A DNA stretch of 64,000 nucleotides, taken from NCBI GenBank assembly GCA_903813345.2, contig CAIIXF020000010.1, positions 20,039,181-20,103,180 on the forward strand, given 5' to 3'. The notes under the pieces were generated by a model. That model had not been told where the DNA came from and ran no database searches. It was given only the letters and a program-made list of their open reading frames with translations. The position numbers and the translations under genes are program-made. Below, piece by piece: positions 15,581 through 63,987 of the stretch (its first letter is position 1; every line of letters begins with the position of its first letter). Source of the DNA: Owenia fusiformis. Taxonomy: Eukaryota > Annelida > Polychaeta > Sabellida > Oweniidae.

Positions 15581-15585
15581 GTCCG

Positions 15586-34451: not shown

Positions 34452-34639
34452 TCAAGTTGCATCTGTGTAATCATGTTGGAACTTAGGATGTGCATCATAT
34501 GGCATCCTCCTGCCATTAATAAGGCACTGAATGATCCATTCAGAAGACACTATAGGGATCTCCCTGTCCTTGGCCTTCTTTAGGGCACTTGCGGGGCAGC
34601 TCTCGTCAGCTACAACCACGTCAAACTGTGCAGTACCAT
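34452..34639 (-). CDS. TP53BP1: TP53BP1-like last exon (BRCT2 part 2)
   Basis: 188 nt including the TGA stop at 34452-34454, with acceptor tgttcag. It encodes [20 protein letters not shown], then [20 protein letters not shown] and ends [12 protein letters not shown]. The W-x-IQCLI core and the HPKxxHDY tail are the C-terminal signature of 53BP1. Confidence 0.93.
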
Positions 34640-38030: not shown

Positions 38031-38458
38031 CTGGAATTCACAGTAAACATGATAGTTAGAAATAATCTTGATTTACATCATTAAATATTCAAAATTCAGT
38101 AAAAGTGATGTCATATTTGAAATCTACATGTAAAAGTAAGCTAGAAATATGGTTTCGAAAATTGTTTATCAACTTAAAAATATTTTTGAAATGTGACTTC
38201 TAGTTCAGGTTGATTCCTCATAGACCCTATGTTACAAAACCACAAAAAGTGAAATATCTTTTCTTGTATTGGACAGATAACATTTTATTTTACTGGGAAT
38301 ATTTTAATTTGCATAACTATTTAATACATAAGGGTTATATGAAAACTGAACCACTAAAACAGATGTAATTTAAGTAAAAGGGAACTTTCTATTTATTATA
38401 CCCGCCATGCTGTCTGACCCGAACAAGCCACTTGGTGGTGAAACTGGTAACTACTTAC

Positions 38459-38481
38459 TCGCATCTGCGTTATTAGAACAG
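38459..38481 (-). CDS. candidate 23-nt micro-exon of the TP53BP1-like gene
   Basis: On the minus strand, acatag|CTGTTC.. is followed 23 nt later by gcga|gtaagt. It would end in phase 1, exactly what the next exon (38030) needs, and would add CSNNADA before the shared Lys. The acceptor is ordinary and the length is unusual, so chance is possible. Confidence 0.25.
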
Positions 38482-38971: not shown

Positions 38972-39180
38972 ATGGCTACATATTTAAATAATCATATCCT
39001 TTGTGGTAAATATAGATTTGTTTATTTCATATATATGTTGATAGTATTAATTATTCAAATGTTTATTTACTCAATGGATTTCATAATGAAACCTGGCAGA
39101 TTAGACACAATAAATCCAGACTTCATCGATGATGCACCTCGCATACAAGCTGTTCGTTTTGGCTTCTCTATTGTCACGGG
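38972..39180 (+). CDS. candidate upstream exon of the EGF-domain gene
   Basis: The frame starts at an ATG at 38972, twelve bases after an in-frame stop, and ends at a good donor (cacggg|gtaaga, last exon base 39180, phase 2). The second half reads LDTINPDFIDDAPRIQ and AVRFGFSIVTG, which looks like real protein. The first half (RFVYFIYMLIVLIIQMFIYS) could be a signal anchor of a type II membrane protein. It could also be AT-rich intron read in frame, with the exon starting after ctggcag at 39100. Joined through the caag acceptor at 59574 it continues TG|GFRYGVPTYD in frame. The link across the satellite intron is an inference. Confidence 0.5.
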
Positions 39181-39212
39181 GTAAGAAAACTTATCAAAAT
39201 ACTAGTATATTA

Positions 39213-39488
39213 TATTATCCTACACTTAGTGTATTAAATGTATAATAACATCAAAAAATAAATTTGATATTTATTGGCAAAATGAATAACCGGAGGATAT
39301 CGTGATGATATACTCCGGGCGGAGGATATCGTGACGATATACTCCGGAAAACCCAATATGCGGAGGATATTGTGACGATATACTCCGCCTGTTGATTTCC
39401 CGCCAAATTGACTCTATTTGGCATGAAAGTCATTTTGCAATGATATTAATTATACATTTAGTACACTCCTTGAAAGTGTAGGATAATA
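39213..39488. repeat. fold-back element with internal palindromes
   Basis: 39213-39253 and 39441-39488 are inverted copies (tattatcctacactt, taaatgtataa and tatca blocks). Between them are three copies of a palindrome of type cggaggatat-cgtgacg-atatactccg at 39290-39390. It begins about 30 bp after the donor of the candidate exon. Confidence 0.75.
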
Positions 39489-39492
39489 AGAA

Positions 39493-39614
39493 CATCCTAT
39501 GATTTTTTCAGAATATCATTTGTGATATTGATATATGCCCTCGTTCGCTTTGCTCTCTCGTGCAGATATCAATATCACCTCGTAGATAAAAATGATATTC
39601 CTCAAAATCATAGG
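39493..39614. repeat. hairpin with 40-50 bp arms
   Basis: 39493-39534 pairs with 39565-39614 (atcctatgattttt, gaatatcat, gatattgatat and their complements) around a CT-rich loop. It adjoins the fold-back element to its left. Confidence 0.75.
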
Positions 39615-39867
39615 ATATCCTATAAATATTAATAGTTATGATTGTATATTTTTAATTTTATATCAAATTCTTATTCAAAAACAGTCACTTATAAGGGATG
39701 AATTTAAATCATTCAAATAGCAAACACCTAAATATCTCAATCTTACTTATCATATGACGACACAAAAGATTTAGTTTTTATTAAGTTTTACAAGTTAAAG
39801 TTTTGGAACAACAATGTGAATTTTCATCCAAAGGACTTTTTGCCACTTGAAAATTCATTGAATAATC

Positions 39868-39930
39868 TTTGTTATAATGCTTTTCATAATAATGGTTTTC
39901 CGTATAATGGATTTCAGTATAATGCTTTTC
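39868..39930. repeat. short ~18-bp repeat at the left edge of the satellite
   Basis: Three to four imperfect copies of tataatgcttttc or tataatggttttcc directly abut the first satellite monomer. Confidence 0.6.
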
Positions 39931-42900
39931 TTGCTGCTCTTGCATTAATTTCATCAAATGATGTTTCACAGTTCCAATTGCAAGTAGATTCTGCTCTGGT
40001 GTGCCTCCTTATGACTACCCTTTGCTGCTCTTGCATTAATTTCATCAAATGATGTTTCACAGTTCCAATTGCAAGTGGATTCTGCTCTGGTGTGCCTACT
40101 TATGACTACCCTTTGCTCCTCTTGCATTAATTTTATCCAATAATGTTTGACAGTTCCAGGTGCAAGTGGATTCCACTCTGGGTGCCTACTTATGACTACC
40201 CTTTGCTGCTCTTGCATTAATTTTATCCAATAATGTTTGACAGTTCCAGTTGCAAGTGGATTCCACTCTGGTGTGCCTACTTATGACTACCCTTTGCTGC
40301 TCTTGCATTAATTTTATCCAATAATGTTTGACAGTTTCAGTTGCAAGTGGATTCCATTCTGGTGTGCCTACTTATGACTACCCTTTGCTGCTCTTGCATT
40401 AATTTTATCCAATAATATTTGACAGTTCCAGTTGCAAGTGGATTCCACTCTGGTGTGCCTACTTATGACTACCCTTTGCTGCTCTTGCATTAATTTCATC
40501 CAATAATGTTTGACAGATCCAGTTGCAAGTGGATTTCATTCTGGTGTGCCTACTTATGACTACCCTTTGCTGCTCTTGCATTAATTTCATCCAATAATAT
40601 TTGACAGATCCAGTTGCAAGTGGATTCCGCTCTGGGTGCCTACTTATGACTACCCTTTGCTGCTCTTGCATTAATTTTATCAAATAATGTTTCACAGTTC
40701 CAATTGCAAGTGGATTCCACTCTGGTGTGCCTACTTATGACTACCCTTTGCTGCACTTGGATTAATTTTATACAATAATGTTTGACAGTTCCAGTTGCAA
40801 GTGGATTCCGCTCTGGTGTGCCTACTTATGACTACCCTTTGCTGCTCTTGCATTAATTTCATCAAATAATGTTTCACAGTTCCAATTGCAAGTGGATTCC
40901 GCTCTGGGTGCCTACTTATGACTACCCTTTGCTGCTCTTGCATTAATTTCATCAAATAATGTTTCACAGTTCCAATTGCAAGTGGATTCCACTCTGGTGT
41001 GCCAACTTATGACTACCCTTTGCTGCTCTTGCATTTATTTTATCAAAACATGTTTGTTAGTTCCAGGTGCAAGTGGATTCCACTCTGGGTGCCTACTTAT
41101 AACTACCCTTTGCTGCTCTTGCATTGATTTTATCAAAACATGTTTGTTAGTTCCAGGTGCAAGTGGATTCTGCTCTGGTGTGCCTACTTATGACTACCCT
41201 TTGCTGCTCTTGCATTAATTTCATCAAATAATGTTTCACAGTTCAAATTGCAAGTGGATTCCGCTCTGGGTGCCTACTTATGACTACCCTTTGCTGCTCT
41301 TGCATTAATTTTATCAAAACATGTTTGTTAGTTCCAGGTGCAAGTGGATTCCGCTCTGGGTGCCTACTTATGACTACCCTTTGCTGCTCTTGCATTAATT
41401 TTATCAAAACATGTTTGACAGTTCCAGTTGCAAGTGGATTCTGCTCTGGTGTGCCTACTTATGACTACCCTTTGCTGCTCTTGCATTAATTTTATCAAAA
41501 CATGTTTGTTAGTTCCAGGTGCAAGTGGATTCCACTCTGGGTGCCTACTTATGACTACCCTTTGCTGCTCTTGCATTGATTTTATCCAATAATGTTTGAC
41601 AGTTCCAGGTGCAAGTGGATTCCACTCTGGTGTGCCTACTTATGACTACCCTTTGCTGCTCTTGCATTGATTTTATCCAATAATATTTGACAGTTCCAGT
41701 TGCAAGTGGATTCCACTCTGGTGTGCCTACTTATGACTACCCTTTGCTGCTCTTGCATTAATTTTATCCAATAATGTTTGACAGTTTCAGTTGCAAGTGG
41801 ATTCCATTCTGGTGTGCCTACTTATGACTACCCTTTGCTGCTCTTGCATTAATTTTATCCAATAATGTTTGACAGTTCCAGTTGCAAGTGGATTCCACTC
41901 TGGTGTGCCTACTTATGACTACCCTTTGCTGCTCTTGCATTAATTTTATCCAATAATATTTGACAGTTCCAGTTGCAAGTGGATTCCACTCTGGTGTGCC
42001 TACTTATGACTACCCTTTGCTGCTCTTGCATTAATTTCATCCAATAATGTTTGACAGATCCAGTTGCAAGTGGATTTCATTCTGGTGTGCCTACTTATGA
42101 CTACCCTTTGCTGCTCTTGCACTAATTTCATCCAATAATGTTTGACAGATCCAGTTGCAAGTGGATTTCATTCTGGTGTGCCTACTTATGACTACCCTTT
42201 GCTGCTCTTGCATTAATTTCATCCAATAATGTTTGTTAGTTCCAGGTGCAAGTGGATTCCGCTCTGGTGTACCTACTTATGACTACCCTTTGCTGCTCTT
42301 GCATTAATTTCATCCAATAATGTTTGACAGTCCCAGTTGCAAGTGGATTCTGCTATGGTGTGCCCACTTATGACTACCCTTTGCTGCTCTTGCATTAATT
42401 TCATCCAATAATGTTTGTCAGTTCCAGTTGCAAGTGGATTCCACTCTGGTGTGCCTACTTATGACTACCCTTTGCTGCTCTTGCATTAATTTTATCCAAC
42501 AATGTTTGACAGTCCCAGTTGCAAGTGGATTCTGCTATGGTGTGCCTACTTATGACTACTCTTTGCTGCTCTTGCATTAATTTCATCCAATAATGTTTGT
42601 CAGTTCCAGTTGCAAGTGGATTCCGCTCTGGTGTGCCCACTTATGACTACCCTTTGCTGCTCTTGCATTAATTTTATCAAATAATGTTTCACAGTTCCAA
42701 TTGCAAGTGGATTCCGCTATGGTGTGCCCACTTATGACTACCCTTTGCTGCTCTTGCATTAATTTTATCAAATAATGTTTGTCAGTTTCAGTTGCAAGTG
42801 GATTCCGCTCTGGTGTGCCTACTTATGACTACCCTTTGCTGCTCTTGCATTAATTTTATACAATAATGTTTGACAGTTCCAATTGCAAGTGGATTCCGCT

Positions 42901-43128
42901 CTGGGTGCCCACTTATGACTACCCTTTGCTGCTCTTGCATTAATTTTATCAAATAATGTTTCACAGTTCCAATTGCAAGTGGATTCCGCTCTGGGTGCCT
43001 ACTTATGACTACCCTTTGCTGCTCTTGCATTACTTTTATCAAATAATGTTTCACAGTTCCAATTGCAAGTGGATTCCGCTATGGTGTGCCTACTTATGAC
43101 TAACCTTTGCTGCTCTTGCATTACTTTT
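39930..43128. repeat. 90-91 bp satellite, segment 1 (about 35 monomers)
   Basis: Head-to-tail monomers contain, in order, ttgctgctcttgcattaatt, ttatc(a/c)aataatgtttgaca, gttccagttgcaag, tggattccactctggtgtgcc and tacttatgactaccc. Units with ctctgggtgcc are 90 bp and units with ctctggtgtgcc are 91 bp. The part from tggattcc to gactaccc plus ttgctg matches the first ~18 codons of the exon at 59575-59734. The part before it matches that exon's 3' splice-site region. The repeated minus-strand frames (30-residue period) are by-products of the 90-bp units. Confidence 0.95.
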
Positions 43129-43130
43129 TA

Positions 43131-44855
43131 TGTCCCCACCACATAGTGTGGGGCCATATTGTCGGCCTAGGCGCGTCCGTCCGTCCGTCTGTCTGTCTGT
43201 CCGTCTGTCCGTACATCCGGCAGTTTTCTCCAAAACCGCTACAGATATCACCTTCAAATTTTCAGGGATAACTTATGAGTGCATACAGATGTGGATGAAA
43301 AAAAATTAACTCGATACCTACTTCCTGTCGGCCATTTTGAAGTCAAATGCTAAAATCCTTGTCTGCAAACTTTAAGAAAAACGGCTTCACAGTTGCTTTT
43401 AAAACTTTAATATCTTGTTCAGCTCACTTCATTCTAGATCTGATTAGGTTTTGGACCTGTTAGCTCAGTCATGTCAGCCATTTTGAATGTTTTAAGAAAA
43501 GTTAGCGCACGATAATACATTGTATCATATTGAATGGTGTTTTTCAGTTTTCATACTTAAACTATTTCTTAGCTTTATAAATAATTTCAGGTGTACTTTG
43601 TTGTAAAAGCCTATGTTATTGTTAACAGTAGTTATATGTGATAATTTTGTAAAAAGAAATCAGCAAAAACTCATAATCACTTTTTTATTGTCGGCCATTT
43701 TGGATTTTTCCGTCCTAAAATCTTGTCTGTAAAGTCTTGTCTACGCGTTTTCAGGTCAACCGTTTGGTAGATCAATTTCAAATTTTCAGGGATGATTCTT
43801 AGTATGAAAATCTAGATCTGATTAGATTTTGGGCATTCTGGGTAAATGTCAAGGCAGCCATTTTGGATTTTCTGTCCTAAAATCTTGTCTGTAAAGTCTT
43901 GTCTACGCATTTTCAGGTGAACCGTTTGGTAGATCAATTTCAAATTTTCAGGGATGATTCTCAGTATGCAAATCTAGATCTGATTAGATTTTGGGCATTC
44001 TGGTTAAATGTCAAGGCAGCCATTTTGGATTTTCCGTCCTAAAATCTGTCTGTAAAGTCTTGTCTACGCATTTCCAGGTGAACCGTTTGGTAGATCAATT
44101 TCAAATTTTCAGGGATGATTCTCAGTATGAAAATCTAGATCTGATTAGTTTTTTGGCATTCTGGATAAATGTCAAGGCAGCCATTTTGGATTTTCCGTCT
44201 TAAAATCTATCTGATTAGATTTTGGGCATTCTGGTTAAATGTCAAGGCAGCCATTTTGGATTTTCCGTCCTAAAATCTTGTCTGTAAAGTCTTGTCTACG
44301 CATTTCCAGGTGAACTGTTTGGTAGATCATTTTCAAATTTTCAGGGATGATTCTCAGTATGAAAATCTAGATCTGATTAGTTTTTTGGCATTCTGGATAA
44401 ATGTCAAGGCAGCCATTTTGGATTTTCCGTCTTAAAATCTTGCCCGTAAAGTCTTGTCTACGCTTTTTTAGGTGAACCGTTTGGTAGATCAATTTCAAAT
44501 TTTCAGGGATGATTCTTAGTATGGAAATCTAGATCTGATTAGTTTTTGGGCATTCTGGATAAATGTCAAGGCAGCCATTTTGGATTTTCTGTCCTCAAAT
44601 CTTGTCTGTAAAGTCTTGTTTACATGTTTTCTGGTTAACTGTGTGACGGATCAATTTCAAATTTTCAGGGGTGGTTCTTAGTATGAAAATCTAGAACTGA
44701 CTAATTTCTTGGCATTCTGGGTAAATTTTAAGGTGGCCATTTTGGATTTTCCGTCCTCAAATTGTGTCAGTAAAGTCTTGTCTACTCATTTTTAGGATAA
44801 CCATTTGATGGGATCACCCATAGGTGGGGACATTTTGTACACATTTGTGTTCTTG
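43131..44855. mobile_element. 1.7-kb TIR element inserted in the satellite
   Basis: TA flanks both sides (43129-43130 and 44856-44857), and removing the insert rejoins an almost perfect monomer. The left end tgtccccacc and the right subterminal ggtggggaca (44823-44832) are inverted. A short palindrome (ccaccacatagtgtgggg) and a gtccgtctg simple repeat follow the left end. The interior has five or six diverged modules of ~170 bp containing gccattttggattttcc, cttgtctgtaaagtcttg, caaattttcagggatgat and agatctgattag. No coding sequence is seen. The modules match, inverted, those at 35866-37305. Confidence 0.8.
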
Positions 44856-45540
44856 TATCAAATAATGTTTCACAGTTCCAATTGCAAGTGGATTCCACTC
44901 TGGTGTGCCCACTTATGACTACCCTTTGCTGCTCTTGCATTAATTTTATCAAATAATGTTTGTCAGTTCCAGGTGCAAGTGGATTCTGCTCTGGTGTGCC
45001 TACTTATGACTACCCTTTGCTGCTCTTGCATTAATTTTATCAAATAATGTTTCACAGTTCCAATTGCAAGTGGATTCCGCTCTGGTGTGCCCACTTATGA
45101 CTACCCTTTGCTGCTCTTGCATTAATTTTATCAAATAATGTTTGTCAGTTTCAGTTGAAAGTGGATTCCGCTATGGTGTGCCTACTTATGACTACCCTTT
45201 GCTGCTCTTGCATTAATTTTATCAAATAATGTTTGTCAGTTCCAGTTGCGAGTAGATTCTGCTATGGTGTGCCCACTTATGACTACCCTTTGCTGCTCTT
45301 GCATTAATTTTATCAAATAATGTTTGACAGTTCCAGTTGCAAGTGGATTCCGCTATGGTGTGCCTACTTATGACTACCCTTTGCTGGTCTTGCATTAATT
45401 TTATACAATAATGTTTGACAGTTCCAGTTGCAAGTGGATTCCGCTATGGTGTGCCCACTTATGACTACCCTTTGCTGCTCTTGCATTAATTTTATCAAAT
45501 AATGTTTGTTAGTTCCAGGTGCAAGTGGATTCCACTCTGG

Positions 45541-47770
45541 TGTGCCTACTTATGACTACCCTTTGCTGGTCTTGCATTAATTTTATACAATAATGTTTGA
45601 CAGTTCCAGTTGCAAGTGGATTCCGCTATGGTGTGCCCACTTATGACTACCCTTTGCTGCTCTTGCATTAATTTTATCAAATAATGTTTGACAGTTCCAG
45701 GTGCAAGTGGATTCTGCTATGGTGTGCCCACTTATGACTACCCTTTGCTGCTCTTGCATTAATTTCATCCAATAATGTTTGACAGTTCCAGTTGCAAGTG
45801 GATTCCATTCTGGTGTGCCTACTTATGACTACCCTTTGCTGCTCTTGCATTAATTTTATCAAATAATGTTTGTCAGTTCCAGTTGCAAGTGGATTCCATT
45901 CTGGTGTGCCCACTTATGACTACCCTTTGCTGCTCTTGCATTAATCTTATCAAATAATGTTTGTCAGTTCCAGTTGCGAGTAGATTCTACTATGGTGTGC
46001 CCACTTATGACTACCCTTTGCTGCTCTTGCATTAATTTTATCAAATAATGTTTGTCAGTTCCAGTTGCAAGTGGATTCTGCTATGGTGTGCCTACTTATG
46101 ACTACCCTTTGCTGCTCTTGCATTAATTTTATCAAATAATGTTTCACAGTTCCAATTGCAAGTGGATTCTGCTATGGTGTGCCCACTTATGACTACCCTT
46201 TGCTGCTCTTGCATTTATTTCATCAAATAATGTTTGTCAGTTCCAGTTGCAAGTGGATTCTGCTCTGGTGTGCCCACTTATGACTACCCTTTGCTGCTCT
46301 TGCATTAATTTCATCAAATAATGTTTGTTAGTTCCAGGTGCAAGTGGATTCCACTCTGGGTGCCTACTTATGACTACCCTTTGCTGCTCTTGCATTAATT
46401 TTATCAAATAATGTTTGACAGTTCCAGTTGCAAGTGGATTCCACTCTGGTGTGCCTACTTATGACTACCCTTTGCTGCTCTTGCACTAATTTCATCCAAT
46501 AATGTTTGACAGTTCTAATTGCAAGTGGATTCCCCTTTGGTGTGCCTATTTATGACTACCCTTTGCTGCTCTTGCATTAATTTCATCCAATAATGTTTGA
46601 CAGTTCCAGTTGCAAGTGGATTCTGCTATGGTGTGCCTACTTATGACTACCCTTTGCTGCTCTTGCATTAATTTTATCTAATAATGTTTGTTAGTTCAAG
46701 GTGCAAGTGGATTCCGCTATGGTGTGCCTACTTATGACTACCCTTTGCTGCTCTTGCACTAATTTTATCCAATAATGTTTGTTAGTTCAAGGTGCAAGTG
46801 GATTCCGCTATGGTGTGCCTACTTATGACTACCCTTTACTGCTCTTGCATTAATTTTATCCAATAATGTTTGACAGTTCTAGTTGCAAGTGGATTCCGCT
46901 CTGGTGTGCCCACTTATGACTACCCTTTGCTGCTCTTGCATTAATTTTATCTAATAATGTTTGTTAGTTCAAGGTGCAAGTGGATTCCGCTATGGTGTGC
47001 CTACTTATGACTACCCTTTGCTGCTCTTGCATTAATTTTATCTAATAATGTTTGTTAGTTCAAGGTGCAAGTGGATTCCGCTATGGTGTGCCTACTTATG
47101 ACTACCCTTTACTGCTCTTGCATTAATTTTATCCAATAATATTTGACAGTTCCAGGTGCAAGTGGATTCCACTCTGGTGTGCCTACTTATGACTACCCTT
47201 TGCTGCTCTTGCATTAATTTTATCCAATAATGTTTGACAGTTCCAGTTGCAAGTGGATTCCACTCTGGTGTGCCTACTTATGACTACCCTTTGCTGCTCT
47301 TGCATTAATTTTATCCAATAATGTTTGACAGTTCCAGTTGCAAGTGGATTCCGCTCTGGTGTGCCTACTTATGACTACCCTTTGCTGCTCTTGCATTAAT
47401 TTCATCCAATAATGTTTGACAGTTCCAGTTGCAAGTGGATTCTGCTATGGTGTGCCTACTTATGACTACCCTTTGCTGCTCATGCATTAATTTCATCCAA
47501 TAATGTTTGACAGTTCCAGTTGCAAGTGGATTCTGCTCTGGTGTGCCTACTTATGACTACCCTTTGCTGCTCTTGCATTAATTTCATCCAATAATGTTTG
47601 ACAGTTCCAGTTGCAAGTGGATTCCACTTTGGTGTGCCTACTTATGACAACCCTTTACTGCTCTTGCACTAATTTTATCCAATAATGTCTGTTAGTTCAA
47701 GGTGCAAGTGGATTCCGCTATGGTGTGCCTACTTATGACTACCCTTTACTGCTCTTGCATTAATTTTATC
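45541..47770. repeat. satellite higher-order block, copy 1
   Basis: The ordered set of monomer variants here recurs at 51263-53860. The offset is 5722 bp for 45541-46560, 5995 bp around 46670-46900 and 6086 bp from 47139 on. The steps of 273 and 91 bp are three monomers and one monomer, so the copies differ by whole-unit gains. Confidence 0.85.
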
Positions 47771-50700
47771 TAATAAAGTTTGACAGTTCTAGTTGCAAGT
47801 GGATTCCCCTTTGGTGTGCCTATTTATGACTACCCTTTACTGCTCTTGCACTAATTTTATCCAATAATGTCTGTTAGTTCAAGGTGCAAGTGGATTCCGC
47901 TATGGTGTGCCTACTTATGACTACCCTTTACTGCTCTTGCATTAATTTTATCTAATAATGTTTGACAGTTCTAGTTGCAAGTGGATTCCCCTTTGGTGTG
48001 CCTATTTATGACTACCCTTTGCTGCTCTTGCATTAATTTTATCAAATAATGTTTGTTAGTTCCAGGTGCAAGTGGATTCCACTCTGGGTGCCTACTTATG
48101 ACTACCCTTTGCTGCTCTTGCATTAATTTCATCCAATAATGTTTCACAGTTCCAATTGCATGTGGATTCCATTCTAGTGTGCCTACTTATGACTACCCTT
48201 TGCTGCTCTTGCATTAATTTTATCTAATAAAGTTTGACAGTTCTAGTTGCAAGTGGATTCCCCTTTGGTGTGCCTATTTATGACTACCCTTTACTGCTCT
48301 TGCACTAATTTTATCCAATAATGTCTGTTAGTTCAAGGTGCAAGTGGATTCCGCTATGGTGTGCCTACTTATGACTACCCTTTACTGCTCTTGCATTAAT
48401 TTTATCTAATAATGTTTGACAGTTCTAGTTGCAAGTGGATTCCCCTTTGGTGTGCCTATTTATGACTACCCTTTGCTGCTCTTGCATTAATTTTATCCAA
48501 TAATGTTTCACAGTTCCAATTGCATGTGGATTCCACTTTGGGTGCCTACTTATGACTACCCTTTACTGCTCTTGCATTAATTTTATCTAATAAAGTTTGA
48601 CAGTTCTAGTTGCAAGTGGATTCCCCTTTGGTGTGCCTATTTATGACTACCCTTTACTGCTCTTGCACTAATTTTATCCAATAATGTCTGTTAGTTCAAG
48701 GTGCAAGTGGATTCCGCTATGGTGTGCCTACTTATGACTACCCTTTACTGCTCTTGCATTAATTTTATCTAATAATGTTTGACAGTTCTAGTTGCAAGTG
48801 GATTCCCCTTTGGTGTGCCTATTTATGACTACCCTTTGCTGCTCTTGCATTAATTTTATCCAATAATGTTTCACAGTTCCAATTGCATGTTGATTCCACT
48901 TTGGTGTGCCTACTTATGACAACCCTTTACTGCTCTTGCACTAATTTTATCAAATAATGTTTGTTAGTTCCAGGTGCAAGTGGATTCCACTCTGGGTGCC
49001 TACTTATGACTACCCTTTGCTGCTCTTGCATTAATTTCATCCAATAATGTTTGACAGTTCCAGTTGCAAGTGGATTCCACTTTGGTGTGCCTACTTATGA
49101 CAACCCTTTGCTGCTCTTGCATTAATTTTATCCAATAATGTTTCACAGTTCCAATTGCATGTTGATTCCACTTTGGTGTGCCTACTTATGACAACCCTTT
49201 ACTGCTCTTGCACTAATTTTATCAAATAATGTTTGTTAGTTCCAGGTGCAAGTGGATTCCACTCTGGGTGCCTACTTATGACTACCCTTTGCTGCTCTTG
49301 CATTAATTTCATCCAATAATGTTTGACAGTTCCAGTTGCAAGTGGATTCCACTCTGGTGTGCCTACTTATGACTACCCTTTGCTGCTCTTGCATTAATTT
49401 CATCCAATAATGTTTGACAGTTCCAGTTGCAAGTGGATTCCACTTTGGTGTGCCTACTTATGACAACCCTTTACTGCTCTTGCATTAATTTCATCCAATA
49501 ATGTTTCACAGTTCCAATTGCATGTGGATTCCACTTTGGTGTGCCTACTTATGACAACCCTTTACTGCTCTTGCATTAATTTCATCCAATAATGTTTCAC
49601 AGTTCCAATTGCATGTGGATTCCACTTTGGTGTGCCTACTTATGACAACCCTTTACTGCTCTTGCACTAATTTTATCAAATAATGTTTGTTAGTTCCAGG
49701 TGCAAGTGGATTCCACTCTGGGTGCCTACTTATGACTACCCTTTGCTGCTCTTGCATTAATTTCATCCAATAATGTTTCACAGTTCCAGTTGCAAGTGGA
49801 TTCCACTTTGGTGTGCCTACTTATGACAACCCTTTGCTGCTCTTGCATTAATTTCATCCAATAATGTTTCACAGTTCCAATTGCATGTGGATTCCACTTT
49901 GGTGTGCCTACTTATGACAACCCTTTACTGCTCTTGCACTAATTTTATCAAATAATGTTTGTTAGTTCCAGGTGCAAGTGGATTCCACTCTGGGTGCCTA
50001 CTTATGACTACCCTTTGCTGCTCTTGCATTAATTTCATCCAATAATGTTTCACAGTTCCAATTGCATGTGGATTCCACTTTGGTGTGCCTACTTATGACA
50101 ACCCTTTACTGCTCTTGCATTAATTTTATCAAATAATGTTTGTTAGTTCCAGGTGCAAGTGGATTCCACTCTGGGTGCCTACTTATGACTACCCTTTGCT
50201 GCTCTTGCATTAATTTCATCCAATAATGTTTCACAGTTCCAATTGCATGTGGATTCCACTTTGGTGTGCCTACTTATGACAACCCTTTACTGCTCTTGCA
50301 CTAATTTTATCAAATAATGTTTGTTAGTTCCAGGTGCAAGTGGATTCCACTCTGGGTGCCTACTTATGACTACCCTTTGCTGCTCTTGCATTAATTTCAT
50401 CCAATAATGTTTCACAGTTCCAGTTGCAAGTGGATTCCACTTTGGTGTGCCTACTTATGACAACCCTTTACTGCTCTTGCACTAATTTTATCCAATAATG
50501 TCTGTTAGTTCAAGGTGCAAGTGGATTCCGCTATGGTGTGCCTACTTATGACTACCCTTTACTGCTCTTGCATTAATTTTATCAAATAATGTTTGACAGT
50601 TCTAGTTGCAAGTGGATTCTGCTCTGGTGTGCCTACTTATGACTACCCTTTACTGCTCTTGCATTAATTTTATCCAATAATGTTTCACAGTTCCAATTGC

Positions 50701-51262
50701 ATGTGGATTCCACTTTGGTGTGCCTACTTATGACAACCCTTTACTGCTCTTGCATTAATTTTATCAAATAATGTTTGTTAGTTCCAGGTGCAAGTGGATT
50801 CCACTCTGGGTGCCTACTTATGACTACCCTTTGCTGCTCTTGCATTAATTTTATCAAATAATGTTTCACAGTTCCAATTGCATGTGGATTCCACTTTGGT
50901 GTGCCTACTTATGACAACCCTTTACTGCTCTTGCACTAATTTTATCAAATAATGTTTGTTAGTTCCAGGTGCAAGTGGATTCCACTCTGGGTGCCTACTT
51001 ATGACTACCCTTTGCTGCTCTTGCATTAATTTCATCCAATAATGTTTCACAGTTCCAGTTGCAAGTGGATTCCACTTTGGTGTGCCTACTTATGACAACC
51101 CTTTACTGCTCTTGCACTAATTTTATCCAATAATGTCTGTTAGTTCAAGGTGCAAGTGGATTCCGCTATGGTGTGCCTACTTATGACTACCCTTTACTGC
51201 TCTTGCACTAATTTTATCCAATAATGTTTGTTAGTTCAAGGTGCAAGTGGATTCCGCTATGG

Positions 51263-53860
51263 TGTGCCTACTTATGACTACCCTTTGCTGGTCTTGCATT
51301 AATTTTATACAATAATGTTTGACAGTTCCAGTTGCAAGTGGATTCCGCTATGGTGTGCCCACTTATGACTACCCTTTGCTGCTCTTGCATTAATTTTATC
51401 AAATAATGTTTGACAGTTCCAGGTGCAAGTGGATTCTGCTATGGTGTGCCCACTTATGACTACCCTTTGCTGCTCTTGCATTAATTTCATCCAATAATGT
51501 TTGACAGTTCCAGTTGCAAGTGGATTCCATTCTAGTGTGCCTACTTATGACTACCCTTTGCTGCTCTTGCATTAATTTTATCAAATAATGTTTGTCAGTT
51601 CCAGTTGCAAGTGGATTCCATTCTGGTGTGCCCACTTATGACTACCCTTTGCTGCTCTTGCATTAATCTTATCAAATAATGTTTGTCAGTTCCAGTTGCG
51701 AGTAGATTCTACTATGGTGTGCCCACTTATGACTACCCTTTGCTGCTCTTGCATTAATTTTATCAAATAATGTTTGTCAGTTCCAGTTGCAAGTGGATTC
51801 CGCTATGGTGTGCCTACTTATGACTACCCTTTGCTGCTCTTGCATTAATTTTATCAAATAATGTTTCACAGTTCCAATTGCAAGTGGATTCTGCTATGGT
51901 GTGCCCACTTATGACTACCCTTTGCTGCTCTTGCATTTATTTCATCAAATAATGTTTGTCAGTTCCAGTTGCAAGTGGATTCTGCTCTGGTGTGCCCACT
52001 TATGACTACCCTTTGCTGCTCTTGCATTAATTTCATCAAATAATGTTTGTTAGTTCCAGGTGCAAGTGGATTCCACTCTGGGTGCCTACTTATGACTACC
52101 CTTTGCTGCTCTTGCATTAATTTTATCAAATAATGTTTGACAGTTCCAGTTGCAAGTGGATTCCACTCTGGTGTGCCTACTTATGACTACCCTTTGCTGC
52201 TCTTGCACTAATTTCATCCAATAATGTTTGACAGTTCTAATTGCAAGTGGATTCCCCTTTGGTGTGCCTATTTATGACTACCCTTTGATGCTCTTGCATT
52301 AATTTCATCCAATAATGTTTCACAGTTCCAATTGCATGTGGATTCCACTTTGGTGTGCCTACTTATGACAACCCTTTACTGCTCTTGCACTAATTTTATC
52401 CAATAATGTTTGTTAGTTCAAGGTGCAAGTGGATTCCGCTATGGTGTGCCTACTTATGACTACCCTTTGCTGCTCTTGCATTAATTTTATCCAATAATGT
52501 TTGACAGTTCCAGGTGCAAGTGGATTCCACTATGGTGTGCCTACTTATGACTACCCTTTGCTGCTCTTGCATTAATTTCATCCAATAATGTTAGACAGTC
52601 CCAGTTGCAAGTGGATTCCGCTCTGGTGTGCCCACTTATGACTACCCTTTGCTGCTCTTGCATTAATTTTATCTAATAATGTTTGTTAGTTCAAGGTGCA
52701 AGTGGATTCCGCTATGGTGTGCCTACTTATGACTACCCTTTGCTGCTCTTGCACTAATTTTATCCAATAATGTTTGTTAGTTCAAGGTGCAAGTGGATTC
52801 CGCTATGGTGTGCCTACTTATGACTACCCTTTACTGCTCTTGCATTAATTTTATCCAATAATGTTTGACAGTTCTAGTTGCAAGTGGATTCCGCTCTGGT
52901 GTGCCCACTTATGACTACCCTTTGCTGCTCTTGCATTAATTTTATCTAATAATGTTTGTTAGTTCAAGGTGCAAGTGGATTCCGCTATGGTGTGCCTACT
53001 TATGACTACCCTTTGCTGCTCTTGCATTAATTTTATCTAATAATGTTTGTTAGTTCAAGGTGCAAGTGGATTCCGCTATGGTGTGCCTACTTATGACTAC
53101 CCTTTGCTGCTCTTGCACTAATTTTATCCAATAATGTTTGTTAGTTCAAGGTGCAAGTGGATTCCGCTATGGTGTGCCTACTTATGACTACCCTTTACTG
53201 CTCTTGCATTAATTTTATCCAATAATATTTGACAGTTCCAGGTGCAAGTGGATTCCACTCTGGTGTGCCTACTTATGACTACCCTTTGCTGCTCTTGCAT
53301 TAATTTTATCCAATAATGTTTGACAGTTCCAGTTGCAAGTGGATTCCACTCTGGTGTGCCTACTTATGACTACCCTTTGCTGCTCTTGCATTAATTTTAT
53401 CCAATAATGTTTGACAGTTCCAGTTGCAAGTGGATTCCGCTCTGGTGTGCCTACTTATGACTACCCTTTGCTGCTCTTGCATTAATTTCATCCAATAATG
53501 TTTGACAGTTCCAGTTGCAAGTGGATTCTGCTATGGTGTGCCTACTTATGACTACCCTTTGCTGCTCATGCATTAATTTCATCCAATAATGTTTGACAGT
53601 TCCAGTTGCAAGTGGATTCTGCTCTGGTGTGCCTACTTATGACTACCCTTTGCTGCTCTTGCATTAATTTCATCCAATAATGTTTGACAGTTCCAGTTGC
53701 AAGTGGATTCCACTTTGGTGTGCCTACTTATGACAACCCTTTACTGCTCTTGCACTAATTTTATCCAATAATGTCTGTTAGTTCAAGGTGCAAGTGGATT
53801 CCGCTATGGTGTGCCTACTTATGACTACCCTTTACTGCTCTTGCATTAATTTTATCTAAT
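51263..53860. repeat. satellite higher-order block, copy 2
   Basis: Partner of 45541-47770. Diagnostic shared variants include ctggtcttgcattaatttta followed by tacaataatg, gttgcgagtagattctac, and ttctaattgcaag with tcccctttgg in the same sequence order. Confidence 0.85.
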
Positions 53861-54950
53861 AATGTTTGACATTTCTAGTTGCAAGTGGATTCCCCTTTGG
53901 TGTGCCTATTTATGACTACCCTTTGCTGCTCTTGCATTAATTTCATCCAATAATGTTTCACAGTTCCAATTGCATGTGGATTCCACTTTGGTGTGCCTAC
54001 TTATGACAACCCTTTACTGCTCTTGCACTAATTTTATCAAATAATGTTTGTTAGTTCCAGGTGCAAGTGGATTCCACTCTGGGTGCCTACTTATGACTAC
54101 CCTTTGCTGCTCTTGCATTAATTTCATCCAATAATGTTTGACAGTTCCAGTTGCAAGTGGATTCCACTTTGGTGTGCCTACTTATGACAACCCTTTACTG
54201 CTCTTGCATTAATTTCATCCAATAATGTTTCACAGTTCCAATTGCATGTGGATTCCACTTTGGTGTGCCTACTTATGACAACCCTTTACTGCTCTTGCAC
54301 TAATTTTATCAAATAATGTTTGTTGGTTCCAGGTGCAAGTGGATTCCACTCTGGGTGCCTACTTATGACTACCCTTTGCTGCTCTTGCATTAATTTCATC
54401 CAATAATGTTTCACAGTTCCAATTGCATGTGGATTCCACTTTGGTGTGCCTACTTATGACAACCCTTTACTGCTCTTGCACTAATTTTATCAAATAATGT
54501 TTGTTAGTTCCAGGTGCAAGTGGATTCCACTCTGGGTGCCTACTTATGACTACCCTTTGCTGCTCTTGCATTAATTTCATCCAATAATGTTTCACAGTTC
54601 CAGTTGCAAGTGGATTCCACTTTGGTGTGCCTACTTATGACAACCCTTTACTGCTCTTGCACTAATTTTATCCAATAATGTCTGTTAGTTCAAGGTGCAA
54701 GTGGATTCCGCTATGGTGTGCCTACTTATGACTACCCTTTACTGCTCTTGCACTAATTTTATCCAATAATGTTTGTTAGTTCAAGGTGCAAGTGGATTCC
54801 GCTATGGTGTGCCTACTTATGACTACCCTTTACTGCTCTTGCATTAATTTTATCTAATAATGTTTGACAGTTCTAGTTGCAAGTGGATTCCCCTTTGGTG
54901 TGCCTACTTATGACTACCCTTTGGTGCTCTTGCATTAATTTTATCAAATA

Positions 54951-56009
54951 CAGGGTGTTCCAAAAGTACCAGGACTGGTGCTGGCATTTTGTCAATTTTG
55001 CACCGAGTGTCTTCAAATTTTCACAAATTGTACTTTGAAGTATTGCAACTAAAATTGTACAGTTTCAGAAAAAATGATGAAATGTGAGTAGAGTTGTGGT
55101 TACTATAGTAACATGACATCACAATACCCGGGGCAACTTTTTCCTGAAAATGTGATATCTAACATTTTTGTATTACTGAAAAAAGTATCTAATTCACCTA
55201 TTATAATACAACATTTCTTGTTTATTTTATTAGTTGCTTTGTTGTAAAGGTGTATGCTATACAACTCAGATTCAAGTATAATTCACAATAATAATAATAT
55301 TTATTCAATTTCCTGGAATATCACTATGAATTACAGTCTGAACAATTCACGGTTGAGTTTTTGAAAAGACCCAATTTGAAGCCAGTTATCCACCTTGATA
55401 ACGCGCCTGCCCGCAGGTCACCATTAAAGACCATGCAGCTATAGAAGAGCTAGGTCTTGAGTTCTAAAACCATGCACCATACTCTTCTGATAATGCAACA
55501 TCCAATTTTTACTTACATGGGGAATGGAATGCTAATCAGTGCTGTAAGATCTTTAAAGATGAGAATGACCTTCTCCAAGTTGTTCAATCGACCATGCGTG
55601 ACATGTCCTCAAATGGGTTCACTCATGTGTTTGAGTCATGGATACAGAGTGCTACTCTTCTACTGACAAAAGAGGAGCCTATTTTTCAAAGTAGAGGATA
55701 CATAGGAATATCAAATTATGTAAAACAAATGTCATTCCCACCAGTTGTTGCATTTCAACTTTGATATGGGATGTACAAAATGCTTAATGTCTCTTTTTGT
55801 CTTAATGTAACTTTCTGCGTGGAATGTTGCCCCGGGTATTGTGATGTCATGTTACCATAGCAACCATAACTCCCGAGTTTCATATTTTTTGTCGAAACTT
55901 TGCAGTTTTAGTAACGATACATGGAAGTACATTATGTAAAATTCTGAAGACGATTGGTGCATATTTAACAAAATGCCATCACCAGTCCTGTTACTTTTGG
56001 AACACCCTG
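54951..56009. mobile_element. 1.06-kb mariner-family element in the satellite, with ~190-bp inverted repeats
   Basis: The ends cagggtgttccaaaagta.. and ..tacttttggaacaccctg are inverted and flanked by TA (54949-54950 and 56010-56011). The outer ~190 bp of each side are inverted copies, including aacatgacatcacaatac and ccggggcaac. Excising it with one TA regenerates the monomer sequence ttatcaaataatgtttgtca exactly. A broken transposase fragment lies inside. Like the element at 7068-9117, it is short with unusually long inverted ends. Confidence 0.9.
55392..55720 (+). pseudogene. decayed mariner transposase fragment
   Basis: HLDNAPARRSP at 55392 matches the mariner motif (H)DNAPAH with the second catalytic Asp. 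After a frameshift it reads IEELGLEF, a stop, NHAPYSSDNATSNFYLH (compare HPPYSPDLAPxDFxLF, third catalytic Asp), and runs on to FESWIQSATLLL. The N-terminal half is absent. At least one frameshift and one stop make it non-functional. Confidence 0.75.
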
Positions 56010-56011
56010 TA

Positions 56012-59000
56012 ATGTTTGTCAGTTCCAGTTGCGAGTGGATTCTGCTATGGTGTGCCCACTTATGACTACCCTTTGCTGCTCTTGCATTAATTTTATCAAA
56101 TAATGTTTGTCAGTTTCAGTTGCGAGTGGATTCTGCTATGGTGTGCCTACTTATGACTACCCTTTGCTGTTCTTGCATTAATTTTATCAAATAATGTTTG
56201 TCAGTTTCAGTTACAAGTGGATTCCGCTCTGGTGTGCCTACTCATGACTACCCTTTGCTGCTCTTGCATTAATTTCATCCAATAATGTTTGTTAGTTCCA
56301 GGTGCAAGTGGATTCTGCTATGGTGTACCTACTTATGACTACCCTTTGCTGCTCTTGCATTAATTTTATCCAATAATGTTTGACAGTTTCAGTTGCAAGT
56401 GGATTCCACTCTGGTGTGCCCACTTATGACTACCCTTTACTGCTCTTGCACTAATTTCATCCAATAATGTTTGACAGTTCCAGTTGCGAGTGGATTCCGC
56501 TCTGGTGTGCCTACTTATGACTACCCTTTACTGCTCTTGCACTAATTTCATCCAATAATGTTTGACAGTTCCAGTTGCGAGTGGATTCCGCACTGGTGTG
56601 CCTACTTATGACTACCCTTTGCTGCTCTTGCATTAATTTTATCCAATAATGTTTGACAGTTTCAGTTGCAAGTGGATTCCACTCTGGTGTGCCCACTTAT
56701 GACTACCCTTTACTGCTCTTGCACTAATTTCATCCAATAATGTTTGACAGTTCCAGTTGCGAGTGGATTCCGCTCTGGTGTGCCTACTTATGACTACCCT
56801 TTGCTGCTCTTGCATTAATTTTATACAATAATGTTTCACAGTTCCAATTGCAAGTGGATTCCACTCTGGTGTGCCCACTTATGACTACCCTTTACTGCTC
56901 TTGCACTAATTTCATCCAATAATGTTTGACAGTTCTAGTTGCGAGTGGATTCCGCTCTGGTGTGCCTACTTATGACTACCCTTTGCTGCTCTTGCATTAA
57001 TTTTATCCAATAATGTTTGACAGTTCCCGTTGCAAGTGGATTCCACTCTGGTGTGCCTACTTATGACTACCCTTTGCTGCTCTTGCATTAATTTCATCCA
57101 ATAATGTTTGACAGTTCCAATTGCAAGTGGATTCCACTCTGGTGTGCCTACTTATGACTACCCTTTGCTGCTCTTGCATTAATTTTATCCAATAATGTTT
57201 GACAGTTCCAGTTGCAAGTGGATTCCATTCTGGTGTGCCCACTTATGACTACCCTTTGCTGCTCTTGCATTACTTTTATCAAATAATGTTTGACAGTTTC
57301 AGTTGCAAGTGGATTCCGCTCTGGGTGCCTACTTATGACTACCCTTTGCTGGTCTTGCATTAATTTTATCCAATAATGTTTGACAGTTTCAGTTGCAAGT
57401 GGATTCCACTCTGGGTGCCTACTTATGACTACCCTTTGCTGCTCTTGCATTAATTTCATCCAATAATGTTTGACAGTTCCAGGTGCAAGTGGATTCCATT
57501 CTGGTGTGCCCACTTATGACTACCCTTTGCTGCTCTTGCATTACTTTTATCAAATAATGTTTGACAGTTTCAGTTGCAAGTGGATTCCGCTCTGGGTGCC
57601 TACTTATGACTACCCTTTGCTGGTCTTGCATTAATTTTATCCAATAATGTTTGACAGTTTCAGTTGCAAGTGGATTCCACTCTGGGTGCCTACTTATGAC
57701 TACCCTTTGCTGCTCTTGCATTAATTTTATCCAATAATGTTTGACAGTTCCAGTTGCAAGTGGATTCCACTCTGGGAGCCTACTTATGACTACCCTTTGC
57801 TGCTCTTGCATTAATTTTATCCAATAATGTTTGACAGTTCCAGTTGCAAGTGGATTCCACTCTGGGTGCCTACTTATGACTACCCTTTGCTGCTCTTGCA
57901 TTAATTTTATCCAATAATGTTTGACAGTTTCAGTTGCAAGTGGATTCCACTCTGGTGTGCCTACTTATGACTACCCTTTGCTGCTCTTGCATTACTTTTA
58001 TCCAATAATATTTGACAGTTCCAGTTGCAAGTGGATTCCGCTCTGGTGTGCCTACTTATGACTACCCTTTGCTGCACTTGCATTACTTTTATCAAATAAT
58101 GTTTGACAGTTCCAGGTGCAAGTGGATTCCGCTATGGTGTGCCTACTTATGACTACCCTTTGCTGCTCTTGCATTACTTTTATCAAATAATGTTTGACAG
58201 TTCCAGGTGCAAGTGGATTCCACTCTGGTGTGCCTACTTATGACTACCCTTTGCTGCTCTTGCATTAATTTTATCAAATAATGTTTGTCAGTTTCAGTTG
58301 CAAGTGGATTCCACTCTGGTGTGCCTACTTATGACTACCCTTTGCTGCTCTTGCATTAATTTTATCCAATAATGTTTGACAGTTCCAGTTGCAAGTGGAT
58401 TCCACTCTGGTGTGCCTACTTATGACTACCCTTTGCTGCACTTGCATTACTTTTATCAAATAATGTTTGACAGTTCCAGTTGCGAGTGGATTCCATTCTG
58501 GGTGCCTACTTATGACTACCCTTTGCTGGTCTTGCATTAATTTTATCCAATAATGTTTGTCAGTTTCAGTTGCAAGTGGATTCCACTCTGGTGTGCCTAC
58601 TTATGACTACCCTTTGCTGCTCTTGCATTAATTTTATCCAATAATGTTTGACAGTTTCAGTTGCAAGTGGATTCCGCTCTGGTGTGCCTACTTATGACTA
58701 CCCTTTGCTGCTCTTGCATTAATTTTATCCAATAATGTTTGACAGTTTCAGTTGCAAGTGGATTCCACTCTGGTGTGCCTACTTATGACTACCCTTTGCT
58801 GCTCTTGCATTAATTTTATCCAATAATGTTTAACAGTTTCAGTTGCAAGTGGATTCCACTCTGGTGTGCCTACTTATGACTACCCTTTGCTGCTCTTGCA
58901 TTAATTTTATCCAATAATGTTTGACAGTTCCAGTAACAAGTGGATTCCGCTATGGTGTGCCTACTTATGACTACCCTTTGCTGCACTTGCATTACTTTTA

Positions 59001-59574
59001 TCAAATAATGTTTGACAGTTCCAGTAACAAGTGGATTCCGCTCTGGGTGCCTACTTATGACTACCCTTTGCTGCTCTTGCATTAATTTTATCAAATAATA
59101 TTCAACAGTTTCAGTTGCAAGTGGATTCCACTCTGGGTGCCTACTTATGACTACCCTTTGCTGCTCTTGCATTAATTTTATCCAATAATGTTTGACAGTT
59201 TCAGTTGCAAGTGGATTCCACTCTGGTGTGCCTACTTATGACTACCCTTTGCTGCACTTGCATTACTTTTATCAAATAATGTTTGACAGTTCCAGTTGCG
59301 AGTGGATTCCATTCTGGGTGCCTACTTATGACTACCCTTTACTGCTCTTGCATTAATTTTATCCAATAATGTTTGACAGTTTCAGTTGCAAGTGGATTCC
59401 ACTCTGGTGTGCCTACTTATGACTACCCTTTGCTGCTCTTGCATTAATTTTATCCAATAATGTTTGACAGTTTCAGTTGCAAGTGGATTCCATTCTGGTG
59501 TGCCTACTTATGACTACCCTTTACTGCTCTTGCATTAATTTTATCTAATAATGTTTGACAATTCCAGGTGCAAG
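56012..59574. repeat. 90-91 bp satellite, segment 3 (about 39 monomers)
   Basis: It continues segment 2 after the mariner and ends inside the functional exon. The last monomer supplies the branch-point region and acceptor of the exon at 59575. Segment 3 has many ctgggtgcc 90-bp units and tttcagttgcaag variants, giving long minus-strand frames of about 30-residue period up to 160 codons. Confidence 0.95.
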
Positions 59575-59734
59575 TGGATTCCGCTATGGTGTGCCCACTT
59601 ATGACTACCCATTGCTGTTATATGAAGGAAGTGAATGCTCTGGAATAGAGACACCTGCTAGAGAGTCCTTATACACAATGATTACAAGCATTGATGCAAA
59701 TGGAACCCTTCAAAGGCACTTTCAGTCACTGAAG
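59575..59734 (+). CDS. EGF-domain gene, exon at the end of the satellite
   Basis: This exon encodes GFRYGVPTYDYPLLLYEG followed by SECSGIETPARESLYTMITS and IDANGTLQRHFQSLK (53 full codons). The donor is aag|gtattt, phase 0. Two acceptors seven bases apart are possible: ccag ending 59567 (phase 1) and gcaag ending 59574 (phase 2). The second fits the donor at 39180. The first ~18 codons are the sequence amplified in the satellite. I do not recognise a domain in this exon. Codons beyond position 18 are absent from the array, which shows the direction: exon border amplified, not satellite exonised. Confidence 0.85.
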
Positions 59735-60245: not shown

Positions 60246-60525
60246 AGTTTTGATGGTTGTACCCTTGAATTAAAGAGGATGGACACACATGCTAGATACC
60301 TATTCAACAACACTAACAATGACTGCTATAACAAGATGACATTCTTAGCTGAAACGTCAGGTGAACCCAGTTTTGATTTTAATGAGACAGTACCGTATGC
60401 ACTGAGGGTGGTAAATGGAACAGCCAAAGATGTCACATGTTCATACAGCTGTATATATGGCAGCTGTGCCGTAGATGGAGAATGCAGCTGTGATGAGGGG
60501 TTTGATGGGGAAGCATGTACAATAG
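60246..60525 (+). CDS. EGF-domain gene, exon with first EGF-like module
   Basis: 280 nt with acceptor attttag and donor atag|gtataa, entering in phase 0 and leaving in phase 1. It encodes 93 residues. The first ~62 (SFDGCTLELKRMDTHARYLF onward, with NNT, NET and NGT glycosylation sites) are unrecognised. Residues 65-91 (CSYSCIYGSCAVDGECSCDE then GFDGEAC) have six cysteines with the C-x-C-x5-G-x2-C ending of an EGF-like domain. The protein is therefore extracellular or a membrane ectodomain. Confidence 0.9.
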
Positions 60526-61297: not shown

Positions 61298-61591
61298 AAT
61301 TTTTTGATGACTGGTTTAAGAGAAACGTGTGTTCAAAAAGTTTGCCATATCGACACCCATCTTTTCACACATCTTTTGGCTTTTGTAAATTTCTAGTTTT
61401 TAATATACATTTTGCAAACTGGAATATCCAGTATACCAAAACTATTAAAAAAAATGAAAAAATGAAAGTTGGTTATTTTGACTCTGCTTCAGTTTTACTG
61501 GATGATGATCAACGTGGTGCTGAATACCTACCCACAAATGAGATACCACTTGTGGTTTTCTTTGAACACTATTATATGCCAAATGCTGATA
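61298..61591 (+). CDS. EGF-domain gene, exon
   Basis: 294 nt with acceptor tttgcag and donor gata|gtaagc, phase 1 at both ends. It encodes FFDDWFKRNVCSKSLPYRHP onward, including KVGYFDSASVLLDDDQRGAE and IPLVVFFEHYYMPNAD, 97 full codons. No domain is recognised; the mix of aromatic and acidic residues suits a beta-rich extracellular module. The split codons at both borders close correctly (G|AA and A|TT). Confidence 0.88.
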
Positions 61592-62152: not shown

Positions 62153-62293
62153 TTGAACTGCCACAAAGAATCCAGCCAGGGTTTCCAGTAAAGTTTGCAT
62201 CTTATGACATAGTGACGGCACAGCTAACCACTTACTTCAACTCCTTTAAGATTTATGGACACTCAGCTCTCATGTTTTATAGCATGGATGAAG
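62153..62293 (+). CDS. EGF-domain gene, exon
   Basis: 141 nt with acceptor ttattag and donor gaag|gtaggg, phase 1 at both ends. It encodes ELPQRIQPGFPVKFASYDIV, TAQLTTYFNSFKIYGHSALM and FYSMDE. No domain is recognised. It probably belongs to the same module as the preceding and following exons. Confidence 0.88.
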
Positions 62294-63729: not shown

Positions 63730-63987
63730 ATGGAAGTATGAATTTTCGAATGGTTGAAAATATTGGGAATGTGGTTAATATCCATATGTTTTTAATGGCC
63801 AATGAAGATGTTGCAAAAGCTATACATTACAATGATGATTATGAACACACATCTTCTATAGACTTTTACGTGATATATCTAGTACAGCCTCAGTGTTCTG
63901 TATGTAATGACCCAGTTGGAGGACAATGCTACAGGACATCAGAATGCGTCTGCCACACTGGATACACAGGAACAAACTGTTATAATG
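63730..63987 (+). CDS. EGF-domain gene, exon with second EGF-like module (gene continues beyond the window)
   Basis: 258 nt with acceptor attttacag and donor aatg|gtaagt, phase 1 at both ends. It encodes GSMNFRMVENIGNVVNIHMF, then DVAKAIHYNDDYEHTSSIDF, and near its end CSVCNDPVGGQCYRTSECVC with HTGYTGTNC, a compact EGF-like domain. The pattern of ~170-240 unknown residues followed by an EGF repeats that of the exons at 59.6-60.5 kb, so the protein may be built of repeated [unknown module + EGF] units. The end of the gene is outside the window. Confidence 0.9.

What the first reader, a model, noticed from the sequence alone, without database searches (positions are those of the whole stretch)
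39930..59734. Intronic satellite whose monomer is a copy of the downstream 3' splice site and exon start
About 185 monomers of 90-91 bp fill the intron before the exon at 59575-59734. Each monomer holds a branch-point-like cattaat or cactaat, a pyrimidine-containing stretch, an acceptor (ttccag and/or gcaag) and then the exon's own first ~18 codons; read in the exon's frame it gives GF(R/H/C)SGVPTYDYPLLLL and then stops. The functional exon is the final unit and alone continues into unique coding sequence. So an exon-intron border has been amplified into a ~20-kb tandem array of decoy acceptors. The spliceosome must choose the last of them, or the array is used for regulated or cryptic splicing. 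I know of no standard feature class for this.
Basis: partly seen in the sequence, partly recalled or inferred. Interest (0 to 1): 0.9.

Follow-up and report, generated by a model that had tools for sequence, protein, structure and literature searches.

The report
Giant satellite copied from exon border
In this animal genome the start of one exon, with the splice signal before it, has been copied head to tail about 186 times and fills the gene's first intron; smaller cases of the same kind, called 'mirages', are known from amphioxus.

Summary
A tandem array at 39931-59617 holds 183 full 90-91-bp units, 2 units split by insertions, and a final unit that is the intron 1/exon 2 border; similarity continues 50 nt into coding sequence. 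No other locus was found in the 498-Mb genome. One correction: the likely acceptor is ttccag at 59567, not gcaag at 59574; it joins in phase 1 to a signal-peptide-like exon at 39129-39180. Both array edges lie at a shared 6-bp TTGCTG, as expected if one 91-bp tandem duplication founded the array. The host gene (EGF-like modules, Thr-rich tail) lies antisense inside what looks like a TP53BP1-like gene. Acceptor strength alone cannot explain why the last unit would be chosen: 24 of 150 decoys score as well. The class already exists: 'mirages', border-spanning minisatellites of amphioxus, with 3 and 6 units in the globin case I read, and suggested there not to disturb splicing. This is a much longer member; its host lineage is unresolved. 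Most likely it is a by-product of unequal exchange that splicing ignores. RNA and orthologues could not be tested.

The parts
39129..39180 (+). Exon 1 coding part: MMHLAYKLFVLASLLSR + 1 nt, signal-peptide-like, phase 1, donor GGG|gtaaga
   Evidence: hydrophobic core LFVLASLL (mean 2.90). No signal-peptide program was available. A second frame (phase 2, ATG at 38972) is also open and also holds a hydrophobic stretch (MLIVLIIQ, 2.96)
39181..59567 (+). Intron 1 of the host gene, 20,387 bp, mostly filled by the array
   Evidence: gene model by reading
39931..59520 (+). Tandem array: 183 full 90-91-bp decoy units and 2 interrupted ones
39931..39936 (+). TTGCTG at the left array edge: one half of the 6-bp direct repeat of the proposed founding duplication
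43129..44852 (+). Insertion inside the array (1,724 bp, 162-bp tandem repeats inside, 11-bp inverted ATGTCCCCACC near its ends, 4-column overlap of the split unit)
54951..56009 (+). Insertion inside the array (1,059 bp, inverted ends alike over about 117 of the 120-121 bp compared, 2-column TA overlap; mariner-like by reading)
59521..59617 (+). Final unit = real border: CTAAT branch-site-like, ttccag acceptor, 50 nt of exon 2, ends in TTGCTG
59568..59734 (+). Exon 2 (GASGFRYGVPTYDYPLLLYEGSECSG...), 167 nt; its first 50 nt are the part shared with the units
60246..60525 (+). Exon 3, first EGF-like module (below Pfam cut-offs)
61298..61591 (+). Exon 4
62153..62293 (+). Exon 5
63730..63987 (+). 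Exon 6, second EGF-like module (weak; by Cys pattern and module alignment); an open Thr-rich stretch follows beyond the window
34455..38040 (-). BRCT-side exons of a TP53BP1-like gene; a Tudor exon on the same strand lies about 29 kb past the window's right end, so the array probably also lies antisense in a TP53BP1-like intron
   Evidence: for 34455-34658 and the Tudor exon; the stretch up to 38040 is my reading

Best explanation
This is a giant 'mirage': a satellite grown from the 3' end of intron 1 plus the first 50 nt of exon 2. One tandem duplication between two 6-bp TTGCTG copies, one in the intron and one in the exon, made the first extra 91-bp unit (inferred from the edges). Unequal exchange then expanded it to 186 units (inferred; a duplicated block inside the array is seen). 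Every upstream unit ended up inside the intron because its reading frame soon stops in most units, so transcripts joining exon 1 to the last acceptor are the ones that make the protein. Splicing probably ignores the decoys because only the last acceptor is followed by the full exon and its donor 167 nt on (inferred, not shown). The array is most likely neutral for the gene.
For: Array edges coincide with TTGCTG on both sides. Only this locus was found. The final unit is in register and continues into an open exon of a six-exon, 397-codon model without stops; its acceptor score 2.72 lies within the range of the model's other acceptors, -0.68 to 3.70. One 11-unit run recurs 63 units later with <=1 difference per unit, and two 7-unit runs recur at other shifts. 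34 of 183 units carry a frameshift deletion. Heterozygosity is 0.049/0.078/0.078 at codon positions 1/2/3, so position 3 is not freer than position 2. The final unit differs from the array at two fixed or nearly fixed columns, 41 (A, against G 182 and T 1) and 91 (A, against T 183), like the published exclusion of cluster edges from homogenisation. The published mirages are suggested not to interfere with regular splicing.
Against: No RNA data. Decoy acceptors are not clearly weaker: 24 of 150 ttccag decoys score at or above the real one. Exon 2's own donor is weak (1.4), below the ctg|GTGTGC inside many units (2.25), so 'only the last unit has a donor' is not clean. The exonic part of the units varies less than the intronic part (heterozygosity 0.074 against 0.098; pairwise 7.1% against 9.5%; significance not tested), which pure neutrality does not predict. 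Exon-first is not proven: the contribution of the exon's first 17 residues to the similarity with a second module of the same protein is matched by 8.3% of shuffles and 3.3% of intron-derived peptides (BLOSUM45), by 16% with a higher gap cost, 54% with PAM250, and is nil with BLOSUM62. The exon 1 frame rests on the acceptor score; the other frame is open too.
Confidence: 0.7

Rival explanations
1. Array first: the satellite grew from unique intron sequence, and exon 2 was later extended leftwards into the last unit by use of its ttccag, so the first 50 coding nt are a converted satellite unit.
For: An in-phase AG with a modest score lies 10 nt past the array edge (59627/59628, score 1.3). The exon's first 17 residues have no significant relative on their own.
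Against: Needs a second event. Whole-module similarity (score 103, best of 200 shuffles 74) begins at GFRYGVPT with BLOSUM45, which weakly favours an old exon start.
Confidence: 0.17
2. Functional decoy array: the acceptors bind splicing factors without productive splicing and slow or regulate removal of intron 1, or yield a short secreted peptide (signal peptide plus about 20 residues, then stop).
For: 181, 150 and 168 of 183 units keep AG1, AG2 and AG3. Joining exon 1 to AG2 gives a 37-residue product in 113 of the 150 units that have AG2. The exonic part varies less than the intronic part.
Against: No third-position bias relative to position 2, and frameshifts in 34 of 183 units. AG2 is lost in 33 units and AG3 in 15 of 183.
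Confidence: 0.07
3. Micro-exon chain: each unit is a 21-nt phase-1/phase-1 micro-exon (AG2 to GTGTGC) separated by about 70-nt introns, adding seven residues such as VASGFHS or GASGFRY per unit.
For: 121 of 183 units have both AG2 and the GT, none of them with a stop, longest run 17. The potato RdRp gene gained an intron from a duplication across the same kind of border.
Against: The GTGTGC donors score 2.25 at most, although exon 2's own donor scores no better. 21-nt exons are normally skipped (general knowledge). No positive sign of coding constraint.
Confidence: 0.04
4. Assembly artefact that inflated a small repeat.
For: Copy number cannot be checked without reads.
Against: 111 distinct unit sequences among 183, and two different insertions inside the array.
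Confidence: 0.02

Closest known systems
Mirages of amphioxus (Adh3; globins BflGb6 and BflGb9), PMC3087553: abstract passage and section 16 read
   Same: Minisatellite-like tandem duplications spanning an intron-exon border. BflGb6 repeats the 3' end of an intron plus the 5' part of exon 2. Many units carry splice signals. Cluster edges escape homogenisation.
   Different: There 6 and 3 units of 150-160 bp in two haplotypes of BflGb6, and 10-72-bp units in Adh3 (copy number not seen by me); here 186 units of 90-91 bp over 19.7 kb with transposon-like insertions. Host lineage here unresolved.
[quoted passage not shown] review PMC3443670 (passages)
   Same: Duplication across the intron 1/exon 2 border, with branch site, pyrimidine tract and 3' splice site inherited.
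   Different: Two copies and a newly spliced intron supported by RNA-seq; here about 185 extra copies and no evidence that a new intron is spliced.
Variable internal tandem repeats in human segmental duplications, PMC2812944 (passages)
   Same: Minisatellite expansion that, at exon-intron boundaries, may form novel introns.
   Different: On average 30-bp units repeated 4 times.
Satellite-containing gigantic introns of Drosophila Y genes, PMC6508621 (passages)
   Same: Satellite DNA fills introns of a gene.
   Different: Simple satellites such as (AATAT)n, megabase scale, not copied from the gene's own exon border.

Membership tests
Mirages (border-spanning minisatellites) | Tandem units span an intron-exon boundary and include coding sequence | tested here: met
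   the boundary itself is a gene model by reading
Mirages (border-spanning minisatellites) | Units carry splice signals | tested here: met
   all 183 full units keep at least one of the three AGs
Mirages (border-spanning minisatellites) | Edge unit escapes homogenisation | tested here: met
   two columns fixed or nearly fixed against the final unit
Mirages (border-spanning minisatellites) | Regular splicing unaffected | not testable with these tools
   no RNA data
Mirages (border-spanning minisatellites) | Length instability between alleles | not testable with these tools
   one assembled sequence
Mirages (border-spanning minisatellites) | Reported host lineage (cephalochordates) | tested here: inconclusive
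   no GFP-family match, with no positive control; 3 matches over cut-off to the erythrocruorin linker family, one with an internal stop; no hemerythrin match, although 7 of 14 controls matched. What these families say about lineage is recalled
[quoted passage not shown]
   121 of 183 units have AG2 and GT, weak donors only; no RNA
Dispersed satellite DNA | Arrays at several loci | tested here: not met
   only this locus found (2 of 3 candidates scored)

The most novel reading that the evidence does not exclude
The array is spliced internally: 21-nt in-phase micro-exons from the units are joined in variable number, giving the mature secreted protein a variable N-terminal heptad repeat (GASGFRY/VASGFHS)n, a combinatorial protein-length generator born from an amplified splice border.
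Probability: 0.04. Interest if true: 0.9.

Novelty: new member of a known kind. Interest (0 to 1): 0.5.

Why it matters
It gives a traceable origin for a satellite: a coding border, with a 6-bp seed duplication still visible at both edges. It also sets a natural test of splice-site choice, with about 185 near-identical acceptors upstream of the real one. If the genome proves not to be a cephalochordate's, border-derived repeats are not special to amphioxus and can reach satellite size.

Tried and rejected
It would fit the alternative phase-2 frame of the same exon, which is also open (ATG at 38972) and also begins with a hydrophobic stretch, so the choice rests mainly on the acceptor score. 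Splice scores use human-like matrices recalled from memory; only relative values matter.

Exon definition by donor scarcity alone: weakened, since donors inside units (2.25) score above exon 2's donor (1.4).

Proof of exon-first from intragenic module similarity: significant for the whole module, not for the first 17 residues.

Paralogues in the genome: none found for exons 2 and 3. The 103 rows are all this locus, so weak paralogues could be hidden. PDB search of the protein: best E 0.5, nothing convincing. A TP53BP1 reading of the frame at 66725-66949 (extended coordinates) got no Pfam or PDB support. A scan for other first exons with donor score >=5 gave one poor candidate (33283-33417) and by its threshold could not see the exon 1 donor, 3.65. 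A second scan of 38041-39930 with six donor types gave four candidates, two of them the two frames of exon 1.

Literature searches: searches returned nothing; one search returned one unrelated paper; some searches returned the papers cited or ones I judged unrelated from the listing. 'Mirage' was reached through. The Adh3 mirage paper is not held.

One search contained a one-base error in the exon 1 start, corrected; its exon 1 translations are not used, while its codon-position, feature, module and insertion results do not depend on it.

Full report
What is there. The window holds a tandem array at 39931-59617. Unit by unit there are 183 complete copies, two copies split by insertions, and a last copy starting at 59521. 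A whole-unit search also found only this locus, scoring 2 of 3 candidates. Units are 91 bp, or 90 bp where one T is lost (34 of 183). Mean pairwise difference is 8.5%, with 111 distinct sequences among 183.

The border. Most units contain TTAAT or CTAAT at columns 15-19 (168 of 183), up to three AGs, and the first codons of exon 2. The last unit alone continues into the unique open sequence. It has CTAAT at columns 25-29 (14 of 183 others do), lacks the first AG (2 of 183 others do) and has G after ttccag (52 of 183 others do). No other full unit combines all of these with an intact ttccag, 0 of 183. Two columns are fixed or nearly fixed against it: column 41 (182 G, 1 T) and column 91 (183 T).

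The gene. Reading both sides gives six exons: 39129-39180, 59568-59734, 60246-60525, 61298-61591, 62153-62293 and 63730-63987, encoding 397 residues without a stop, followed beyond the window by a Thr-rich open stretch. The boundaries are my reading, not a gene predictor's. The first exon reads MMHLAYKLFVLASLLSR|G, like a signal peptide (hydrophobic core LFVLASLL; no dedicated predictor was run). This phase needs the ttccag acceptor, which scores 2.7 against -5.2 for gcaag and lies among the scores of the model's other acceptors, -0.68 to 3.70. A second frame of exon 1 is open too and would fit gcaag, so the 7-nt correction is probable, not certain. Pfam gives EGF (teneurin-type) similarity below the curated cut-offs. 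On the other strand, BRCT sequence at 34455-34658 and Tudor sequence at C10:20132157-20132345 match TP53BP1. If these are one gene, the EGF gene and its array lie inside it.

Origin. The left edge reads ...cttttc|TTGCTGCTCTTGC and the right edge ...ctaccca|TTGCTG|ttatatg. A single duplication between two TTGCTG copies 91 bp apart would create the unit and this register. One run of 11 units recurs 63 units away with at most one difference per unit, and two runs of 7 recur at other shifts. Two insertions, one with long inverted ends and a TA overlap, interrupt the array.

Function. Joining exon 1 to ttccag of a decoy gives mostly a 37-residue product (113 of 150 units with that AG), so decoy use would be unproductive. 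Decoy acceptors are not reliably weaker: 24 of 150 score at or above the real one. No GT in the array outside the insertions exceeds 2.25 (0 of 1104 reach 4), but exon 2's own donor scores only 1.4. What makes the last unit win is therefore not settled by these scores. Codon position 3 is not more variable than position 2, though position 1 is lower (0.049/0.078/0.078). The exonic part of the units varies less than the intronic part (0.074 against 0.098; pairwise 7.1% against 9.5%); I did not test this difference and it is not explained. The simplest view remains a tolerated by-product.

What is known. Ebner et al. 2010 (PMC3087553; section 16 read) describe 'mirages' in amphioxus: minisatellite-like duplications of intron-exon borders in Adh3 and globin genes, with 6 and 3 units in two haplotypes of BflGb6, edge units escaping homogenisation, and RT-PCR and Adh3 data that suggest no interference with regular splicing. 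The Adh3 paper they cite was not held. Ma et al. 2016 (PMC4974935; abstract and section 5 read) describe a two-copy duplication across an intron 1/exon 2 border that made a new intron. The present array is the same kind of thing at much greater length than the cases whose copy number I saw. Lineage: the genome gives three above-cut-off matches to the erythrocruorin linker C-terminal family, one with an internal stop, none to the GFP family (no positive control) and none to hemerythrin. From recalled family distributions the first two hint at an annelid-like animal rather than amphioxus, while the third does not help an annelid reading. The lineage stays open.

Open points. Orthologues and RNA were out of reach. 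An in-phase AG with a modest score at 59627 keeps the array-first reading alive. The micro-exon reading (121 of 183 units have both signals, none of them with a stop) is not excluded but has no positive support.

Noticed in passing
window 34455-38040 (-) and C10:20132157-20132345 (-): A TP53BP1-like gene appears to enclose the EGF gene and the array on the opposite strand; intermediate exons were not established.
   Followed up: partly
window 39873-39930 and 15584-15704: A 15-bp repeat (TATAATGCTTTTCAG) abuts the array's left edge; compared by hand it matches, with one mismatch, the reverse complement of a 15-bp repeat 24 kb away (units).
   Followed up: no
window 39931-59617, columns 48-91 and 1-6 of the units against columns 7-47: The exon-derived part of the units is less variable than the intron-derived part; untested and unexplained.
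   Followed up: partly
window 57148-57964 and 58870-59235 (-): The antisense strand of the array has open frames up to 181 aa made of repeats of about 30 residues.
   Followed up: no
window 8074-8751: Two adjacent + frames look like a broken mariner-type transposase (by reading).
   Followed up: no
window 20794-22077: Long open frame that looks like a neuropeptide-type seven-helix receptor (by reading).
   Followed up: no
window 27713-28696: Open frame with a Cys-rich start, Thr-rich stalk and hydrophobic end, possibly a WAP-like anchored protein (by reading).
   Followed up: no
L016, after the window end (extended coordinates 64130-65535 and 69072-69719): Thr-rich mucin-like open frame that probably continues the host gene, then a separate open frame with a chitin-binding-like end (by reading).
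   Followed up: no
G000:C6:27033687-27048438: Cluster of three erythrocruorin linker-like matches, one with an internal stop; a hint at lineage only.
   Followed up: partly
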